Of a DNA stretch of 64,000 nucleotides, positions 3,958 through 11,183 are shown one piece after another (position 1 is the stretch's first letter; the number at the start of each line of letters is the position of its first letter). The notes beneath the pieces are model-generated. The model saw only the letters and a list, made by a program, of their open reading frames with translations, had not been told where the DNA came from and searched no databases. Made by a program: the position numbers and the translations under genes. The DNA comes from Arthrobacter sp. PAMC25564 (lineage in GTDB: Bacteria > Actinomycetota > Actinomycetes > Actinomycetales > Micrococcaceae), in the NCBI RefSeq assembly GCF_004798705.1, contig NZ_CP039290.1:1364001-1428000 (forward strand), in the 5' to 3' direction.

Positions 3958-4110
3958 TTCAGATGTATACCACCGACAGGCGAGGAGAACCGCTGCCCGA
4001 TTCGCGGCCTCGACGGCGGGTGCTTCCTTCCGGCGTTGAGGCCCCGTGGGTAGAATCGAGGCCTGAACATCGCAGCAACGCAGCAGCACCGCCGGAATTA
4101 CGGAGATTTA

Positions 4111-4926
4111 ATGTCACGATGGCTCGAGGTCGGTCCGGACAACTACGTACTGACAACCCAGGGATCCCTGCTGAACACCGGCCTGGTGGTGGGGACCGAA
4201 CGCGCCATGGTGATCGACACCGGCGGCGGACCCCGGCAGGGTCGCGAGATCCTCGATGCGGTGCGGGAGAAGACGCAGCTGCCGCTCGTCGTCGTCAACA
4301 CCCACGCCCACTACGACCACTTCTTCGGCAATGCGGTCTTCGCCGACGACGGCGTCACGGAGTTCTGGGCCCACGAGAACTGCGCTGCCGCCATCGAGGA
4401 CAACGGTGACGGACAGCGCCGGCTCGTGGAGTCCGGGGAACCGGAAATGGCGGCCGGGCAGGGTGAGAACGTCGAACTGGTGGTGCCGAACGCCATCGTC
4501 AAGGACCAGCCGGTCCTGGTGGACCTCGGCGGCCAGAGCGCCACGCTGTTCTATTTGGGCCGCGGACACACCGACGGCGACCTCCTGGTGGGGACCGGCA
4601 CCACCCTCTACACGGGGGACCTCGTGGAACAGGGCTCGCACCCGTCCTTCGAGGATTCCTACCCGGAAGATTGGGCCGACGCCCTCCGGCACCTCTCCGC
4701 CCTCCGGCACCGCTACGAGTTCCTGATTCCCGGCCACGGGGAGCCGTGCGGGGACCAGTTCGTCAAGACCATGGCCAACACCATGTCCACCGCGGTGCGG
4801 CAGGCCGTCCAGTCCATCCGCGACACGCCCAGCGACGCGACCAAGGCGATCCCGGTGCTGCCCTACGGACCCGAACAGTCCCGCTGGTTCATCAAGCGGC
4901 TGCAGGAGACCCGGGCGCAGCACTGA
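4111..4926 (+). CDS. Metallo-beta-lactamase fold hydrolase
   Basis: A 271-residue cytoplasmic protein of the metallo-beta-lactamase superfamily. The metal site is intact: THAHYDH gives His65, His67, Asp69 and His70; GRGHTDGD supplies a further His; GDLVEQG and the late IPGHGEP give the bridging Asp and the last His. No signal peptide is present. The size and spacing suit glyoxalase II-like or general hydrolases of this fold; the substrate cannot be told. The ATG at 4111 follows CGGAG by about 8 bases. It is the first normal high-GC gene after the IS-remnant segment and appears to be a single-gene unit, since the next gene starts after 97 bases. Confidence 0.85.
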   Translation: MSRWLEVGPDNYVLTTQGSLLNTGLVVGTERAMVIDTGGGPRQGREILDAVREKTQLPLVVVNTHAHYDHFFGNAVFADDGVTEFWAHENCAAAIEDNGDGQRRLVESGEPEMAAGQGENVELVVPNAIVKDQPVLVDLGGQSATLFYLGRGHTDGDLLVGTGTTLYTGDLVEQGSHPSFEDSYPEDWADALRHLSALRHRYEFLIPGHGEPCGDQFVKTMANTMSTAVRQAVQSIRDTPSDATKAIPVLPYGPEQSRWFIKRLQETRAQH

Positions 4927-5023
4927 GCCGTTCGGGGACGCTTGGGCGCGCCTAACGGGCAAGCTCCCGGGCTGCCACGCAAGGGTAGGATGGCGGCAGA
5001 TATCCGGTCTCTATTGGGGGAAT

Positions 5024-6232
5024 ATGCGGGGATATACTGCTGCACCCATCCGTGGTGATACGACACTGCCTGCGTTAACCGGGTTGCGGTTCCTGGCTGC
5101 ACTAGCGGTCTTGATATCGCATTTCAACCACAGAGGGCTGATTTCAGTTCCCGCCGGCGTGATCGAATTCCTCGACGGCGGCCGAACGGCGGTAGCCCTT
5201 TTCTTCGTGTTGTCCGGGTTCATCCTGGCGTACAACTACCCGGGCCTGTCCGGCTCCGCTGAGCGGACCAGGTTCTATGCCAGCCGGATCGCCCGAATCT
5301 ATCCGGTAACGCTGCTCGCGCTCGGACTCGGGGCCATTGGTGTCAGCTACGCCGCCACGCACCCGGATTCGGGCCGCCTGCTGGACTGGTACTCGCTGGA
5401 GGAAGCCAGCCCGTTCGCCCTTGGAACCAGTTTCCTGGCTCAGGCGACCATGACAACCGCGTGGTTCCCGGTGGCCGCCGTGACCCAGCCGTGGAACGGC
5501 TCGGCTTGGAGCATCGGCTGTGAGGTGTTGTTCTACGCTTTGTTTCCCCTCCTGATCGTGAAGCTTCGCAAGCTGAGGTTCAAACACATCGCCTACATCC
5601 TGATCGGGGCGTGGATCTTCCAGATGCTGGCGATCCGGGCGGCCATTTCGTTCGCCCCGGCAGAGCAAGTGGGCTTGCTGGTGTACCAGTTCCCCGTATT
5701 GCACCTGTTTGAATTCCTCGTGGGCATAGCGGCGGCCATCGTGTTCCTCCGGGGCGGCCGGGAATGGTTGTCACGGGGCTCACGGCGCCGCCTCGTGCTG
5801 GCGGCAGCTCTTGTCCCGCTGACGCTGCTGTCCTTGTTTCAGCCGGTTGCCCCGGCCTACGTCTTGATGGGCCCGCTCTTTGCCGTGCTTATCCTGGGCC
5901 TGGCCGTGAACCCTGCAGGCCGCCGCAGCTTCCTGGCGAGGCGGCCCATGATTCTTCTTGGCGAGGCAAGCTTCGCGCTCTACATGATTCATGCGCCGTT
6001 GATGATGATCTTCATGATTGCGGACCCGCCCGAAGGGGCGGGCTGGTTGCTCATGGCTGGCACGGTGGGCCTGAGTATCGCCGTCTTCCGCTGGTTCGAA
6101 ACCCCGGCACGCCACTGGACACGCGCAGCTGTCCTCCGAATGGTGCCGTCCGGTTGGGGCCGCGACAGGCCAGCGGTAAATCTCCTAGTTCCCGGTAAAC
6201 CATCAGGCCCTGTGAATACAGTCGAGGACTGA
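5024..6232 (+). CDS. Membrane-bound acyltransferase of family 3 (OafA/YrhL type)
   Basis: A 402-residue integral membrane protein. It opens with LTGLRFLAALAVLISHF, the signature of acyltransferase family 3, where His33 is the expected catalytic residue. About ten hydrophobic segments follow, including FFVLSGFILAYNY and the late ASFALYMIHAPLM. Such enzymes carry acetyl or other acyl groups across the membrane to sugars of surface polysaccharides, antibiotics or lipids. No periplasmic SGNH domain is attached; the C-terminus is a short soluble tail. GGGGGA stands just before the ATG. A role on the same surface glycans as the deacetylase at 1.4-2.9 kb is possible, but only from proximity. Confidence 0.85.
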   Translation: MRGYTAAPIRGDTTLPALTGLRFLAALAVLISHFNHRGLISVPAGVIEFLDGGRTAVALFFVLSGFILAYNYPGLSGSAERTRFYASRIARIYPVTLLALGLGAIGVSYAATHPDSGRLLDWYSLEEASPFALGTSFLAQATMTTAWFPVAAVTQPWNGSAWSIGCEVLFYALFPLLIVKLRKLRFKHIAYILIGAWIFQMLAIRAAISFAPAEQVGLLVYQFPVLHLFEFLVGIAAAIVFLRGGREWLSRGSRRRLVLAAALVPLTLLSLFQPVAPAYVLMGPLFAVLILGLAVNPAGRRSFLARRPMILLGEASFALYMIHAPLMMIFMIADPPEGAGWLLMAGTVGLSIAVFRWFETPARHWTRAAVLRMVPSGWGRDRPAVNLLVPGKPSGPVNTVED

Positions 6233-6253
6233 ACACCTTCCGGGTTGCGGGCC

Positions 6254-6454
6254 TCAGTGTTGGCGGATCAGCGCGAGGTAGGCGACCGATCCTGCGGCGG
6301 CAGCCAACAGGGCGAGCCCCACGTATTGAGCCATCCGCCAAAAGCGGCGGCGCGCGGTCCTGCGGACCTCGTCTGCCATGGTGTAGCCGTGCTTCAACGC
6401 TTCCTCCAGTGGATCGTGCCGCCCGGCTGGTACTGCAAGCCGGGTATTGGACAT
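6254..6454 (-). CDS. Small single-helix membrane protein flanking the ImmA module
   Basis: A 66-residue protein if read from the ATG at 6454 (MSNTRLAVPAGRH); longer starts at 6475 (ATG) and 6481 (TTG) lie inside the palindrome and seem less likely. The layout is an acidic/polar N-terminus, a very basic stretch RRTARRRFWRM, one hydrophobic helix (YVGLALLAAAAGSVAYLAL) and a short tail, so the N-terminus should be cytoplasmic. It is divergent from the peptidase gene at 6548 and shares with it the 12-mer GGCATGTCCAAT over the start codon. The basic-helix part resembles the small protein at 8573-8716, which bounds the module on the other side. I know no named family. Confidence 0.55.
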   Translation of the reverse strand: MSNTRLAVPAGRHDPLEEALKHGYTMADEVRRTARRRFWRMAQYVGLALLAAAAGSVAYLALIRQH

Positions 6455-6482
6455 GCCTAATCTACAATTAGACATGTCCAAT
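6446..6482. promoter_or_regulatory. 16-bp inverted repeat, likely operator over the start of the divergent small gene
   Basis: ATTGGACATGCCTAAT (6446-6461) and ATTAGACATGTCCAAT (6467-6482) are inverted copies with one mismatch, 5 bases apart. The left arm covers the ATG of the leftward gene. A further half site lies over the start codon of the rightward gene. Symmetry and position suggest a dimeric regulator; the HTH protein at 8078-8506 is the obvious candidate. Binding is inferred. Confidence 0.65.
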
Positions 6483-6544
6483 AATCATGCCGCAGTCTGC
6501 TTTGTTACGAAGTGAAATCGGCCTGTACAAAAAGGTAAGGTTTG

Positions 6545-6556
6545 GGCATGTCCAAT
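6545..6556 (+). promoter_or_regulatory. Third half site of the same repeat, over the peptidase start codon
   Basis: GGCATGTCCAAT here is identical to the 12-mer that covers the start of the leftward gene, and contains the ATG at 6548. The two divergent proteins therefore both begin Met-Ser-Asn. Such placement would let one protein block both genes. Confidence 0.55.
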
Positions 6557-7063
6557 CCTGAGCCGGAGGGTTCCCTGGCGGCCAACTACGACGAAGCCCG
6601 GGGGATCGCCGTTGCGGCGAATGCCCTGCTGGACCTCCCGGACACGGTCAGCCTGGACACCATCCGGCGGTACGTGGAGACGCTCCGTGGGCGTCGGGTG
6701 GTCATCCGGGAGACGAGCGACCTCAATGGCAGCGACGTTTGCGGGCTGTGGTTCGGCCTTGACGACATGGAGCTCATCTTCCACGCGTCAGCGGCGCAAG
6801 GCCTGCACCGGGACCAGATCATCCTGCACGAATTCAGCCATATTCTCCTCAACCATGAGCAGGAGGACTTCCCGGCCGCGCAGTTCCAGGGGATCTTCCC
6901 GCAGCTGGACGGGAACGCGGTGCTGCGCGCGCTGCAACGCAGCGGACAGGGCTCCGTCACGGAAATGTCCGCGGAAATCCTTGCCGATCTGCTGGCTGAG
7001 CGGATCCGCCTGTCCGGTCCCTCCTCTAAGCGGTTGAAGAAGTTCGACGAGGTCTTCGGATGA
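6548..7063 (+). CDS. ImmA/IrrE-type metallopeptidase
   Basis: A 171-residue soluble protein with a zinc-peptidase motif HEFSH at residues 94-98, in the setting IILHEFSHILLNH usual for ImmA/IrrE (COG2856). Relatives cut repressors or act with HTH partners; in actinobacteria this short form is often labelled as the toxin part of a toxin-antitoxin-like pair. The ATG at 6548 was chosen over a TTG two codons upstream because TAAGG lies 10 bases before it and the protein then begins MSN like the divergent gene. It overlaps the next gene by 4 bases (ATGA), so the two are translationally coupled. Family assignment is firm; the target is unknown, and the HTH protein two genes on is the likely partner. 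Confidence 0.85.
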   Translation: MSNPEPEGSLAANYDEARGIAVAANALLDLPDTVSLDTIRRYVETLRGRRVVIRETSDLNGSDVCGLWFGLDDMELIFHASAAQGLHRDQIILHEFSHILLNHEQEDFPAAQFQGIFPQLDGNAVLRALQRSGQGSVTEMSAEILADLLAERIRLSGPSSKRLKKFDEVFG

Positions 7064-8085
7064 TGCAACTGGTTGCCGTGGCCGTTCTTGGCGTCGCTGT
7101 TGCCGTCCGATTCCCCTCCCTGCTGAAGAACCGCCGGGATCCGGTGTTCTTCGGCTGCCTCTTTGCCCTGCTGGCTGTCCTGGCGAACATGCGCCCGGTG
7201 TTGATGCTGGCCTACGCAACATTCGGTCCCGGCGTGGCATCCACTGTCCTGGTAGGGGGCCTGGCCAGCCACCTCATGATGCTGACGGCCTTGTTTTTCA
7301 TCGGTTCGGCGCTGGCGAGTGCCGCGGTCCCGGACGGCGTTTGCCGAACGAGCAACGCGAAGCCCTTTCTCGTTTTTGTGGTGGCAGTGGCCGCGCAACT
7401 TACCACCTTTGCCGGAGCCGGGCTCGGGGCATACCTGCCCATGCTGCTGGATGGGAGGCCCGGCGTGCAGGAGGTCACCACCGCCTACGTGCTCTTTGAA
7501 CTGACGTTCATCCTCTATCTCCTCTGGGTGTTCGCCCACCTTGCCCGTACCTGCGTCAGGTACGTCCCGCGGATGACCGGCGGCATGAAAACCGGCTTCA
7601 GGGTTGTCGCCGCAGGCATCATCATCGGGGGAGCCATGGCCATCCTGTACCTTGGCGCGCTGCTGCTCAGCTACGTGCAAAGGGACCCGCATGCGGCGGC
7701 CGCCCTGGCGTCCTGGTATGCCGCGGCCAGGGGGGCAGGCACGGCCTGCATTGGCATCGGCCTTGCCATTCCCGCGGTATCAAGCCGGCTGGCCCGCTGG
7801 CGCGGACGGCAGGCCAGGCAGTGGATACGTGCGGTCTGGGAGCGGACCGTAGGGCCGGCAAACCTGCAGCTGATACCCCTCAGTGTGTCGGCGTCGGCCG
7901 AGCAGCGGGCGCACCGGATGCTGATTGAAATCCACGACGCCAACCTGGCCGGCCGAGGAACCGGGCTGACCGCCGAAGACGCCTTGAAATTGAAAAAGGC
8001 CGAAAGCCGCCTGGCGTCGTCCGGAGCCAGGACCGGAAGCCCCGCCGCGGCGGGCCATTCAGATTTAGGAGAGCACCATGCCTGA
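7060..8085 (+). CDS. Seven-helix membrane protein, DUF6545 / MAB_1171c type
   Basis: A 341-residue protein with about seven hydrophobic segments in the first 240 residues (for example LFALLAVLANMRPVLMLAYA and FLVFVVAVAAQLTTFAGAGL), followed by a cytoplasmic domain of roughly 100 residues (WERTVGPANLQLIPL, RAHRMLIEIHDANL). This layout and the IEIHDA segment match what is called the MAB_1171c family of putative transporters with a C-terminal DUF6545. No transport motif is visible, so the name transporter is weak. The gene overlaps the ImmA-type peptidase before it by 4 bases and the HTH gene after it by 8. That gene order is known to me from other actinobacteria. It may be a membrane sensor or the peptidase target. 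Confidence 0.8.
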   Translation: MMQLVAVAVLGVAVAVRFPSLLKNRRDPVFFGCLFALLAVLANMRPVLMLAYATFGPGVASTVLVGGLASHLMMLTALFFIGSALASAAVPDGVCRTSNAKPFLVFVVAVAAQLTTFAGAGLGAYLPMLLDGRPGVQEVTTAYVLFELTFILYLLWVFAHLARTCVRYVPRMTGGMKTGFRVVAAGIIIGGAMAILYLGALLLSYVQRDPHAAAALASWYAAARGAGTACIGIGLAIPAVSSRLARWRGRQARQWIRAVWERTVGPANLQLIPLSVSASAEQRAHRMLIEIHDANLAGRGTGLTAEDALKLKKAESRLASSGARTGSPAAAGHSDLGEHHA

Positions 8086-8506
8086 CACCGGAGGACTTCC
8101 AAGCAGCCAGACGCTGGCCCGCAAACTGGACCTGTTGATGGACACCATGGTGGCGGAGGGCGGGGAGCCATACAGCTACCTGGACATCGCCGAGGCAATG
8201 GACCGGGCCGGAACGCCCTTGTCCCGGGCGCGATGGCAGTACATGCGCGCCGGTACTGGTCCGCAACCGCGTGACCGCGGACTCCTGGCCAACCTGGCCA
8301 GGTTCTTCCAGGTGGATGGGTCCTACCTGCTGGAAGAGAATTGCGAGCTCCCGGACCGGATCACCTCCCAGCTCGAACTGCTGCGGACCATGCGCGCCGC
8401 AAAAGTCCGCAGTTTCGCCTCCCGCCAGCTCGCCGATCTGTCACCGGACACGCTGCGCCGCATCAGCGAAATGATCGAGGCCGAAACCGGGCCGTCCCGG
8501 CCCTGA
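8078..8506 (+). CDS. Small HTH regulator of the ImmA/DUF6545 module
   Basis: A 142-residue protein. Residues 10-80 form a Cro/C1-like helix-turn-helix of the divergent actinobacterial type: LARKLDLLMDTM, YSYLDIAEAMDRAG, SRARWQYMRAGTG and LLANLARFFQVDGSYL, the last being the usual end of an XRE domain that counts residues before a short C-terminal helix. TTAGGAGAGCACC gives a strong ribosome site before the ATG at 8078, inside the end of the preceding gene. It is the third gene of the module and the obvious candidate to bind the palindrome at 6446-6482. Degradation by the ImmA-type peptidase would fit the family, but is inferred. Confidence 0.8.
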   Translation: MPDTGGLPSSQTLARKLDLLMDTMVAEGGEPYSYLDIAEAMDRAGTPLSRARWQYMRAGTGPQPRDRGLLANLARFFQVDGSYLLEENCELPDRITSQLELLRTMRAAKVRSFASRQLADLSPDTLRRISEMIEAETGPSRP

Positions 8507-8572
8507 GGCGATTTTCGACATAAACCGCTGGACTGTCCCTACCCGAAACATCGGGCAGGTACCATCCCCTAT

Positions 8573-8716
8573 ATGCGGACTGACATGGGCAGATACCACG
8601 CCAGGGATACAAAACGGGAATCCCGGAGACGGCGTTTCCAGGCACTGGCGTACGCGGGGCTGGCCGCGCTCGCCGTGGTGACGGCCGCCGTCGTCGTGAT
8701 CGCGCTGCAGCGGTGA
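8573..8716 (+). CDS. Tiny single-helix membrane protein (47 residues)
   Basis: The frame from the ATG at 8573 to TGA at 8714-8716 encodes 47 residues: a polar start, the basic stretch KRESRRRRF, one hydrophobic helix (LAYAGLAALAVVTAAVVVIAL) and a final QR. The pattern RRRF-x-x-x-A-x-Y-x-GLA repeats that of the protein at 6254-6454, so the two may be related and bracket the ImmA/DUF6545/HTH genes. TACCAT lies 7 bases before the ATG and could be a -10 of a leaderless transcript; no ribosome site is seen. CCCGA-aaca-TCGGG at 8541-8554 is a small inverted repeat in its promoter. Confidence 0.5.
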   Translation: MRTDMGRYHARDTKRESRRRRFQALAYAGLAALAVVTAAVVVIALQR

Positions 8717-8842
8717 CCCGACTCGCCGGCTCCGGGCCACCGGCGCGTCGGTTGAGGCTGCCGCCTGCCCCTAGACTTGGACCTTGGACCTATTCAAACG
8801 AGCGTTGCAGCGGCCTGCGCTGTGAGTCCTAGGGGAACACGT

Positions 8843-10153
8843 ATGCCAGAACCGGTCGACACCACCTCTGCTGACGCTGCCGTCGAGGCAGAGCAGCCCG
8901 AACTCCGACGCCGGCGTGACCGCCGCGGCGATGACTCCGACCCCCGGACGGGAACCATGCCAATCATCACGCCCAACGACGTCGGCAACCAGCCGGTGGC
9001 TCCGGTCCGCAGCGGATCCTGGGCCGAGGCCGCCGCCGCCGCGGACGCGACCCAGGCCATTGACGGCGCTTCCACTGACAGCGCTTCCACCGATACAGCA
9101 CCGCTTCCGCCGCGGGCGGCCCTGGCCGCCGCCCCGGCCCTGCCCGAAACGGCGCCCGCGGTCCCGGCCCAGCCCGCACGCTCCACCCGCTCCGCCGGCC
9201 GCGCGGCGGCACTGGCCACCCCGGGCCCGGACTTCATCAGCTCACCGGGACTCTTTGTCCGCGAGCAGAAGCCCCGGCCCCGCGGCGGCTTCCGCGGCGC
9301 CCTCTACAAGATGACCGGCGGCAGCCTGAACCTCGGGCCCGGCGCCCGGCAGCGCGAGGAGGACGAGCTCGCGCGGCGCATCTCCCGCCAGCTCCAGGGC
9401 AGCTACAACACCGCCGTCCTGAGCCTCAAGGGCGGGATCGGCAAAACGTCCACCACCGTCGGCGTCGGACTGACCCTGGCCGAATACCGCGGCGATCCGC
9501 CGTGCGCGATCGACGCGAACCCCGACTCCGGCGACCTCGTGGAGCGCGCCCTCGGCGAGGGCCTCTACCAGCAGCAGAGCCCGCGCACCATCACGGACCT
9601 GCTCAAGAACATCGACTCGGTCGATTCGCTCACGGACCTGGCCCGGTACATGCACCATGCCGGCCGGCTGCACCTGATTGCCGGCGAACAGGACCCCGAG
9701 GTCTCCGACTCGCTGACCGCCGAGGAATACCTGCGGATCCGCAAACTCGTCTCCGGCTACTACTCCGTGGCCCTGACGGACTGCGGAACCGGCGTCACGC
9801 ACAACGCCATGAGCGGGATCCTGCAGTCTGCGGACAACCTGATCATCGCGTCGGGCTATGCCGTCAGCGGGGCCAAGCGCGCCCGCAGCACCCTGCACTG
9901 GCTGGCGAGCCACGGCTACGAGGAACTGGCCCGCAACGCGATCGTGGTCATCACGGATAAGGACGAGGTCTCCTCCCGGGTGGACAAGGACGCGATCGAG
10001 GAGCACCTGTCCGGCATCTGCCGGCAGCTGATCGCCGTTCCCCACGACCGCGGAGTGGCCGACGGCGACCTCGTCACCCTGGACGTGCTGCGCCCCGAAA
10101 CACGGCGGGCCTACAAGGAGATCGCCGCCGCGATCGTGGACGGGTTCGTTTAG
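8843..10153 (+). CDS. MinD/ParA-like ATPase with long disordered N-terminus
   Basis: A 436-residue protein. The ATG at 8843 follows AGGGGAACACGT; an in-frame start 66 bases upstream lacks a ribosome site. Residues 1-185 are low in order and rich in Ala, Pro, Thr and charged residues. The ATPase domain starts near 188 with LSLKGGIGKTS, a deviant Walker A with the signature Lys196 and Lys201; ALTDCGTG is Walker B-like and IVVITDKDE follows. This arrangement is that of MinD-like ATPases tied to type VII (ESX) secretion and to unlinked actinobacterial copies. No ESX gene is near. It would act as a membrane- or partner-bound switch. The GAF-ANTAR gene follows after 8 bases, so the two may share a transcript. 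Confidence 0.8.
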   Translation: MPEPVDTTSADAAVEAEQPELRRRRDRRGDDSDPRTGTMPIITPNDVGNQPVAPVRSGSWAEAAAAADATQAIDGASTDSASTDTAPLPPRAALAAAPALPETAPAVPAQPARSTRSAGRAAALATPGPDFISSPGLFVREQKPRPRGGFRGALYKMTGGSLNLGPGARQREEDELARRISRQLQGSYNTAVLSLKGGIGKTSTTVGVGLTLAEYRGDPPCAIDANPDSGDLVERALGEGLYQQQSPRTITDLLKNIDSVDSLTDLARYMHHAGRLHLIAGEQDPEVSDSLTAEEYLRIRKLVSGYYSVALTDCGTGVTHNAMSGILQSADNLIIASGYAVSGAKRARSTLHWLASHGYEELARNAIVVITDKDEVSSRVDKDAIEEHLSGICRQLIAVPHDRGVADGDLVTLDVLRPETRRAYKEIAAAIVDGFV

Positions 10154-10896: not shown

Positions 10897-10971
10897 CGCT
10901 GCCCACCGCGACCTCCCAGCCCCGCCCACCGCCCGTCCCCGCCCACCGTGCCCCACCCGCCCACCCAACTA

Positions 10972-11021
10972 GCTCGCAGTTGTTGTCGTTTTGAGCGCCC
11001 AAAACGGCAACTACTGCGAGC
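10972..11021. repeat. Intergenic palindrome, family C (copy 1)
   Basis: GCTCGCAGTTGTTGTC and its inverse with two mismatches form 22-base arms around a short loop (GAGCGCC region). A second copy, with the same flanks (AACTxGCTCGCAG and CAGTCGGGC), lies at 54698-54745. It sits downstream of the GAF-ANTAR gene, between convergent genes. Confidence 0.75.
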
Positions 11022-11183
11022 CAGTCGGGCCGGGGCAGGCATGGAGACGGGATGGTGCCGCCGGCCCAGGGCCAGGGGCATTCCTGGGGGACGGCCTCCG
11101 CGGGCGCGCCGCCGGAATCGACAACGTCGCCGGGCGCCTCGGGCTCATGCCTTGACGGTCTAAACGTATTTGCCGACGTCCGG

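What the first reader, a model, noticed from the sequence alone, without database searches (positions are those of the whole stretch)
6254..8716. Compact ImmA peptidase / DUF6545 membrane protein / HTH module bracketed by two similar tiny membrane proteins
Seen: three overlapping genes (HEFSH peptidase, seven-helix protein with cytoplasmic domain, small HTH) with a divergent 66-residue and a downstream 47-residue single-helix protein that share a basic RRRF-helix pattern. Known: ImmA/IrrE peptidases act with HTH repressors; the trio recurs in actinobacteria but its role is unknown. Inference: a membrane sensor, protease and repressor form a switch, and the tiny proteins are its outputs (toxic or signalling peptides).
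Basis: partly seen in the sequence, partly recalled or inferred. Interest (0 to 1): 0.75.

Follow-up and report, generated by a model that had tools for sequence, protein, structure and literature searches.

The report
Membrane-protease-repressor switch from conjugative plasmids
A soil bacterium carries a three-gene switch (membrane protein, protease and DNA-binding repressor) of a kind that also sits beside DNA-transfer genes on conjugative plasmids, and its repressor most likely works through three short palindromes found beside it; of the two tiny membrane proteins around it, only one can plausibly be under its control.

Summary
The five genes are real. The trio is an ImmA-like zinc peptidase, a seven-helix membrane protein (distant MAB_1171c/DUF6545 relative) and an EspR homologue. 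The core GACATGTC precedes 40 of 48 non-redundant trio copies (next best of 256 palindromes: 11) and is in 0 of 187 control stretches, so it is very probably the HTH protein's operator. In 32 of 51 trio loci a relaxase or CHAP gene lies nearby; on four conjugative plasmids inspected, including pAO1, trio genes precede a type IV secretion operon. Best reading: an ImmA/ImmR-like switch with an added membrane sensor, here a chromosomal copy inside a ~3.6-kb insertion. The tiny proteins are homologues from a genus-wide family (139 of 206 genomes), found at none of 51 other trio loci. The 47-aa gene is old backbone, kept by relatives lacking the trio at this site. Only the 66-aa gene, whose start codon lies in an operator, is a candidate target. 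Cleavage and sensing are untested. The membrane model resembles GPCR-type folds, without significant Foldseek support in the PDB.

The parts
6548..7063 (+). ImmA/IrrE-like zinc peptidase (171 aa; HEFSH motif)
   Evidence: H94, E95, H98, H103 and E139 invariant in 16 aligned sequences; 5 of these 16 match Peptidase_M78, the window's own does not; a plasmid relative matching my profile at 1.6e-42 is annotated ImmA/IrrE family metallo-endopeptidase
7060..8085 (+). Seven-helix membrane protein with C-terminal helical hairpin (MAB_1171c/DUF6545 relative)
   Evidence: NF042915 E 6.9e-17, below cut-off; AlphaFold2 model mean pLDDT 85.6, pTM 0.82; R286, E290, D293, E315 invariant in 44 sequences
8078..8506 (+). 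EspR-family DNA-binding protein (142 aa), putative repressor
   Evidence: Residues 9-132 match EspR of known structure, E 2.2e-8; the conserved operator goes with its presence
6446..6461 (.). Operator-like palindrome 1, over the start codon of the 66-aa gene
   Evidence: ATTGGACATGCCTAAT
6467..6482 (.). Operator-like palindrome 2, 21 bp from site 1
   Evidence: ATTAGACATGTCCAAT, full match to ATTRGACATGTCYAAT
6541..6556 (.). Operator-like palindrome 3, over the ATG of the ImmA-like gene
   Evidence: TTTGGGCATGTCCAAT
6254..6454 (-). 66-aa single-helix protein, divergent; the only plausible small-protein target
   Evidence: One close relative besides itself among 5.8 billion proteins; homologous to the 47-aa protein and to a genus-wide family
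8573..8716 (+). 47-aa ORF (43 aa from 8585), single-helix protein of the ancestral backbone; not part of the module
   Evidence: Present between the same neighbours in relatives lacking the trio at this site; dN/dS 0.20-0.43
4928..8508 (.). Segment absent at this site in three relatives: acyltransferase, 66-aa gene and trio (right edge within a few bp of the HTH stop)
   Evidence: blastn matches 4048-4927 and 8573-10897 in L202 with 112 bp between; L204 resumes at 8509, L205 at 8510
5024..6232 (+). Acyltransferase_3 gene inside the inserted segment
   Evidence: Pfam PF01757 E 4.6e-32; a 62% homologue lies before the metallo-beta-lactamase gene in L202

Best explanation
The trio is a protease-relieved repressor switch of the kind used by mobile elements (ImmR/ImmA of ICEBs1), with a membrane partner added and an EspR-family repressor. 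The HTH protein binds palindromes with the core GACATGTC (strongly inferred from conservation). In the window one site lies over and one just upstream of the start of the divergent 66-aa gene, and one lies over the ImmA-like start, so it should shut both its own operon and the 66-aa gene (inferred from position). A signal felt by the seven-helix membrane protein lets the ImmA-like peptidase cut the repressor and release the promoters (inferred by analogy; not shown). On plasmids the released promoters would include those of the relaxase or type IV secretion operon. The window's copy is a chromosomal, probably domesticated one, inserted with an acyltransferase gene between a metallo-beta-lactamase gene and the older 47-aa gene.
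For: Count of all 256 eight-base palindromes in about 320 bp before the first trio gene: GACATGTC in 40 of 48 non-redundant loci, next best 11; 0 of 187 control stretches. In a second, overlapping set of 40 loci the exact site occurs in 17 of 25 with an adjacent HTH gene and 1 of 15 without, Fisher p 2e-4. Bases flanking the core vary with the presumed recognition helix: of 30 sites at the 30 LSRSRWAYM loci, 27 have CTG on both sides; of 14 sites at the 13 loci with S-R-A-R-W-H/Y, 11 have TTA or TTG on both sides; the window (SRARWQYM) has TTR. In the genome only five places match TTRGACATGTCYAA with at most one mismatch: the three here and two inside ORFs of 738 and 433 aa. In 10 of 10 TrwC-relaxase loci the site lies between the divergent relaxase gene and the trio (in L118 about 2.9 kb separate them). 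FB24 plasmid 1 has one site before MpaB-trio and one between the HTH gene and the CHAP-ParA-SCO6880-DUF87 operon. Zinc motif intact; EspR homology.
Against: No cleavage, binding or expression data. 8 of the 48 non-redundant trio loci lack the core in the stretch tested (L097, L128, L138, L144, L145, L151, L152, L157), as do L055, L057 and L058 and the pAO1-type plasmid loci L216, L219 and L220, so the operator is not universal. On FB24 plasmid 1 a minus-strand gene lies between the second site and the CHAP gene. 33 of the 69 plasmid records with an HTH match are typed non-mobilizable, and 19 of 51 trio loci show no relaxase or CHAP gene in the stretch held. The window copy has no conjugation genes beside it, and two conjugation proteins gave no match in its genome (no positive control). 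The membrane protein could be a transporter, as its NCBIfam name suggests. No sigma-70-type promoter was found in 6200-6700. Recognition-helix covariation is confounded by relatedness.
Confidence: 0.62

Rival explanations
1. One reading: both tiny membrane proteins are the outputs (toxic or signalling peptides) of the switch.
For: The two proteins are homologous; one operator overlaps the start codon of the 66-aa gene and another lies just upstream.
Against: The 47-aa gene is backbone in relatives lacking the trio here, with homology resuming upstream of it at 8509-8516 in five of them; the family is genus-wide (139 of 206) and absent from 51 trio loci and 39 further loci and from five plasmid loci; no site reaching 13 of 16 matches lies before the 47-aa gene.
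Confidence: 0.08
2. The HTH protein is an EspR-like regulator or architectural protein and the peptidase does not act on it; the peptidase and membrane protein form a separate pair.
For: EspR (recalled) acts without a partner protease; 15 of 40 loci have ImmA-like and membrane genes without an adjacent HTH gene; 27 of 79 HTH loci have neither partner; 20 of 29 distant HTH loci, on short stretches, show no adjacent ImmA-like gene.
Against: HTH, ImmA-like and membrane genes share one overlapping operon in the window; ImmA-like genes also lie next to the HTH gene in 9 of 29 distant loci (L161-L163, L174-L177, L179, L185); ImmA is known to inactivate the neighbouring repressor ImmR (PMC8960796 abstract; PMC2701414 passages).
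Confidence: 0.2
3. Type II toxin-antitoxin-like pair: the peptidase is a toxin and the HTH protein its antitoxin.
For: COG2856-Xre pairs were proposed as toxin-antitoxin modules (PMC2701414, passages), and a listed paper treats such a pair of another genus as one (PMC10538038, listing and start of abstract only); patchy distribution (45 of 395 genomes of the family).
Against: The 2009 paper itself thinks a protease that cleaves an Xre repressor most likely; sites also face relaxase and transfer operons; the ImmA-like gene lies beside the membrane gene in all 40 loci of the first set.
Confidence: 0.06

Closest known systems
ICEBs1 ImmR/ImmA switch (Bacillus subtilis)
   Same: Repressor gene near an HExxH anti-repressor protease gene; operator in the control region; resident on transfer elements in relatives
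   Different: Repressor is EspR-family; a seven-helix membrane protein is part of the operon; gene order ImmA-membrane-HTH or HTH-ImmA-membrane; the window copy is chromosomal, without transfer genes found
EspR (Mycobacterium tuberculosis)
   Same: Nearly whole-length sequence similarity, residues 9-132, E 2.2e-8
   Different: EspR is not known to me (recalled) to have a partner protease; the window protein has compact palindromic sites beside its own operon
MAB_1171c family / DUF6545 membrane proteins
   Same: NF042915 E 6.9e-17; 19 of 44 aligned family members match DUF6545
   Different: Window protein is below the NCBIfam cut-off and has no Pfam match; the family is named a putative transporter, whereas context here suggests a sensor. 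A knockout of MAB_1171c lowered biofilm mass by about half (PMC8707978, passages)
COG2856-Xre modules of Makarova et al. 2009 (PMC2701414)
   Same: Zn peptidase with a DNA-binding partner, mobile, patchy
   Different: That survey set aside Xre-membrane protein pairs and, in the passages seen, does not describe this trio

Membership tests
ImmA/IrrE peptidases (Peptidase_M78, PF06114) | HExxH zinc motif with a downstream acidic ligand | tested here: met
   H94 E95 H98 and E139 invariant in 16 aligned sequences; the ligand role of E139 is recalled by analogy
ImmA/IrrE peptidases (Peptidase_M78, PF06114) | Match to the Pfam model | tested here: inconclusive
   Window protein: no match at E<=1; 5 of 16 aligned members match, best 1e-5
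EspR family | Full-length sequence similarity to EspR | tested here: met
   Four EspR sequences, E 2e-8 to 5e-8, within residues 8-132 of 142
EspR family | Regulation of ESX-1 or a nucleoid role | not testable with these tools
   No expression or binding data
DUF6545 / MAB_1171c | Score over the curated cut-off | tested here: not met
   61.5 bits against 100; no PF20182 match
ICEBs1-type ImmR/ImmA switch | Repressor and protease genes in one cluster, with operator in the control region | tested here: met
   operator assignment is inferred from conservation
ICEBs1-type ImmR/ImmA switch | Proteolytic inactivation of the repressor | not testable with these tools
   Needs bench work
ICEBs1-type ImmR/ImmA switch | Located on a transfer element | tested here: inconclusive
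   Relatives: TrwC relaxase or CHAP gene in the stretch held in 32 of 51 trio loci, and on conjugative plasmids. Window copy: none seen; own genome 0 matches for a relaxase and a SCO6880 protein, without positive control
GPCR-like seven-helix fold | Structural match well above unrelated folds | tested here: inconclusive
Type II toxin-antitoxin | Toxicity relieved by the partner | not testable with these tools
   No growth data

The most novel reading that the evidence does not exclude
A GPCR-like seven-helix receptor in bacteria directly gates a soluble ImmA-type protease that destroys an EspR-family repressor: a three-protein receptor-protease-repressor pathway that decides when actinobacterial conjugative plasmids (pAO1 and others) transfer, with chromosomal copies re-used to control other genes such as a small membrane protein. 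EspR would then be an orphan member of a family whose other members are protease-controlled repressors of mobile elements.
Probability: 0.33. Interest if true: 0.82.

Novelty: new variant of a known kind. Interest (0 to 1): 0.6.

Why it matters
It gives an uncharacterised actinobacterial trio a definite DNA target, a probable job (control of plasmid transfer) and named test plasmids, pAO1 among them. If right, it adds a membrane sensor to the ImmA/ImmR scheme and puts EspR, known from virulence regulation (recalled), in a family that includes protease-linked regulators of mobile elements. It also shows that two look-alike neighbours of an operon need not belong to it.

Tried and rejected
Rejected: the 47-aa gene as a module part (empty-site comparison). 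Rejected: small ORFs as a general companion of the trio; L053 has one unrelated 35-aa hydrophobic ORF upstream. Rejected: an own-genome regulon; the sites at G000:C1 2314192 and 4013291 lie inside ORFs of 738 and 433 aa. Tried without result: PDB sequence relatives of the peptidase (0); NCBIfam names for it (0 of 16 members); own-genome PF20182 search (0); sigma-70-type promoters or terminators; repeats shared by the insert edges (none of 9 bp or more); GACATGTC at more distant relatives (0 of 17 stretches from 16 of the 29 loci); MmpA, a weak E 0.024 NCBIfam match of the 47-aa protein; HTH in phages (0); window membrane protein in phages (0) and plasmids (0: only the query of a relative, L105, found the 18 plasmid records). 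The BFVD search put actinobacteriophage membrane proteins of unknown function at the top (best E 2.8e-4); their context was not followed. Literature: DUF6545 0 papers; MAB_1171c 1; ImmA IrrE with EspR 0; EspR with Arthrobacter 0; Arthrobacter, ImmA and relaxase 1, a review not read; five-term search 2, that review and PMC2701414. These searches cover open-licence PMC only, so I do not claim the trio is absent from print.

Errors and limits: one search used a wrong ImmA reading frame and was redone. In one search the anchor of L059 was a broken-up ImmA ORF and the L046 site lies further upstream, before the MpaB gene, so both count as misses in 17 of 25 though both have a site; L050, L052 and L054 have a one-mismatch form. 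The one exact site among the 15 loci without an adjacent HTH gene (L062) is hardly palindromic beyond the core. L055, L057 and L058 are called Sinomonas only because L055's contig length equals that of L138 and the three share a genus label. The 79 named loci (the tool kept the best 80 of 126) are 51 trio, 27 without partners and 1 partial (L087); 3 of the 51 were dropped as near duplicates. A checkpoint note says both partnerless loci with a site are contig-edge cases; only L121 is, L083 is not. The 40-locus and 79-locus sets overlap (for example L041 and L096). One search ran with BLAST's low-complexity filter on; one search repeated the small-protein search with it off and again found none. 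Of the plasmid records found, five were inspected (L216-L220; L221 is a second stretch of pAO1).
Full report
WHAT IS THERE. The window is G000:C1:1364001-1428000 of a 4.17-Mb single-contig genome; the named loci closest to its HTH protein come from Arthrobacter, Pseudarthrobacter and kin. The trio is ImmA-like (ATG 6548, ends 7063), membrane protein (7060-8085) and HTH (8078-8506), overlapping by 4 and 8 bp. The 66-aa ORF (6254-6454, minus) and the 47-aa ORF (8573-8716, plus) are as described. Pfam gives none of the trio a clear name, but family members do: 5 of 16 aligned ImmA-like proteins match Peptidase_M78 with H94, E95, H98, H103 and E139 invariant; 19 of 44 aligned membrane proteins match DUF6545, while the window's own reaches only 61.5 bits of 100 for NCBIfam's MAB_1171c family; the HTH protein matches the EspR structures over nearly its whole length, E 2.2e-8.

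THE OPERATORS. Between the 66-aa gene and the ImmA-like gene lie three imperfect palindromes: 6446-6461 ATTGGACATGCCTAAT, 6467-6482 ATTAGACATGTCCAAT, 6541-6556 TTTGGGCATGTCCAAT. They are the only places in the 64-kb window matching 13 or more of 16 positions of ATTRGACATGTCYAAT. The first covers the start codon of the 66-aa gene and the third the start codon of the ImmA-like gene; the first two are 21 bp apart. In the whole genome only two further places match TTRGACATGTCYAA with at most one mismatch, and both lie inside long ORFs of 738 and 433 aa.

CONSERVATION. Forty loci with a membrane-protein homologue (the window and L041-L079) all have the ImmA-like gene beside it. An independent search with the HTH alignment gave 79 named loci: 51 with the whole trio, 27 with neither partner, 1 partial. 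In about 320 bp before the first trio gene of 48 non-redundant loci, GACATGTC was present in 40; the next best of all 256 eight-base palindromes was in 11; 0 of 187 control stretches from the same loci had it; 2 of 27 partnerless HTH loci had it. In the 40-locus set, 17 of 25 loci with an adjacent HTH gene and 1 of 15 without have the exact site within the stretch searched (Fisher p 2e-4). Flanking bases vary with the presumed recognition helix: 27 of 30 sites at the 30 LSRSRWAYM loci have CTG on both sides, while 11 of 14 sites at the 13 loci with S-R-A-R-W-H/Y have TTA or TTG on both sides. Gene order changes (HTH first in L041, L053, L082 and others), and the site then stands before the HTH gene. 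So the site follows the operon head and the HTH gene. Against this, 8 of the 48 loci lack it in the stretch tested, as do L055, L057 and L058 and the pAO1-type plasmid loci.

WHAT THE MODULE USUALLY ACCOMPANIES. Of 51 trio loci, 10 have a TrwC relaxase in the stretch held (up to 6 kb either side of the HTH match), all divergent with the site between relaxase gene and trio, in L118 about 2.9 kb away; 22 others have a co-directional CHAP gene, so 32 of 51 have one or the other. TrwC, MPAB_Lcp_cat and CHAP identities rest on Pfam scans of one or two representatives each. An alpha/beta hydrolase homologue is present in 31 and an MpaB-type oxygenase in 7. A relative's membrane protein (L105) finds 18 plasmid records, 12 typed conjugative; the window's HTH finds 69, of which 22 are typed conjugative, 14 mobilizable and 33 non-mobilizable; the window's own membrane protein finds none. 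On FB24 plasmid 1, pCZY, A. sulfonylureivorans p1 and pAO1, trio-type genes precede an operon with DUF6668 that runs into SCO6880, DUF87 or genes annotated as type IV secretion; on the last three, 0.9-1.2 kb separates membrane and HTH genes. FB24 plasmid 1 has one site before MpaB-trio and one after the HTH gene, ahead of the transfer operon, with a minus-strand gene between that site and CHAP. The remaining 19 trio loci, among them most of the HTH-first class and six Sinomonas loci, showed no relaxase or CHAP gene.

THE EMPTY SITE AND THE SMALL PROTEINS. In L202, L204 and L205 a metallo-beta-lactamase gene (92, 90 and 89% identical to the window's), the 43-aa gene, the MinD-like gene and the GAF-ANTAR gene follow in this order without acyltransferase, 66-aa gene or trio between; all three genomes carry a trio elsewhere. 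In L202 the homology ends at window 4927 and resumes at 8573, with 112 bp between against 3645 bp here; in L204 and L205 it resumes at 8509 and 8510, just after the HTH stop. In L206-L212 a homologue of the 43-aa gene is also present, with only some of these neighbours; L213-L215 have none. The 47-aa gene is therefore backbone. The inserted part is lower in GC (0.58 for the 66-aa region, 0.63-0.66 for the other genes, against 0.70 for the MinD-like gene and 0.68 for the window). The two small proteins are homologous and belong to a family found in 139 of 206 genomes of the genus, with exactly two in this genome; in L204 and L205 another member sits just before the 43-aa gene, and L205 has the closest paralogue of the 66-aa protein further downstream. 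None of 51 trio loci, 39 further membrane-peptidase loci or five plasmid loci has a family member in the stretch held. The 66-aa protein has one close relative, 85% identical; it and the one close relative of the 47-aa protein each lie on a contig of 3309 bp, probably one and the same.

MECHANISM. Shown: operon structure, zinc motif, EspR homology, conserved palindromes tied to HTH presence, transfer-gene context in relatives, empty site. Inferred: the HTH protein binds the palindromes and represses. By analogy with ImmR/ImmA (PMC8960796, abstract; PMC2701414, passages), the peptidase cuts it. Inferred with least support: the membrane protein senses and gates the peptidase. In the window only the trio and the 66-aa gene have operators, so the chromosomal copy most likely controls itself and that small protein.

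LITERATURE. Seen as passages: PMC8707978 (a MAB_1171c knockout has about half the biofilm mass) and PMC2701414; seen as abstract and outline: PMC8960796; seen in a listing with the start of its abstract: PMC10538038. Searches for DUF6545, MAB_1171c, ImmA IrrE with EspR, EspR with Arthrobacter, and Arthrobacter with ImmA and relaxase gave 0, 1, 0, 0 and 1 papers.

Searches confirmed that the two stray sites are inside long ORFs, that pAO1 has its type IV secretion operon after the trio, and that the small proteins are absent from the other loci with the filter off.

Noticed in passing
window 8573-8716; L204:3815-3943 and 4042-4185; L205:4702-4827 and 4916-5059: Genus-wide family of about 40-60-residue single-helix proteins, most with a basic stretch before the helix, in 139 of 206 genomes and often several per genome (pairs a few hundred bases apart in several); no name found.
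   Followed up: partly
window 8777-10153: The MinD-like protein is 26% identical over 388 residues (E 1e-27) to the ParA-like protein of the plasmid transfer operon in L218, though it is backbone in relatives lacking the trio at this site.
   Followed up: no
window 10955-11037: A stretch of about 75 bp recurs in relatives as adjacent inverted copies (L202, L209, L212), as in a REP-like or small palindromic mobile repeat.
   Followed up: no
the 27 partnerless HTH loci among L081-L159, e.g. L100, L104, L106: EspR-like genes without peptidase or membrane gene have a CHAP gene in the stretch held in 22 of 27 cases, and 25 of 27 lack the GACATGTC site.
   Followed up: partly
L217:9482-12536 (pACHL01): Two peptidase-membrane gene pairs in tandem after one HTH gene, followed by an MpaB-type oxygenase; two operator sites before the HTH gene.
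   Followed up: no
BFVD models A0A7G8LIL3, A0A7G9UZD0: Gordonia phage membrane proteins of unknown function resemble the predicted seven-helix fold (E 2.8e-4 and 1.4e-3).
   Followed up: no
L161-L163, L174-L177, L179, L185: Distant EspR-family genes in other actinobacterial families also lie next to ImmA-like genes (9 of 29 loci), L174 with a membrane-protein relative too.
   Followed up: partly
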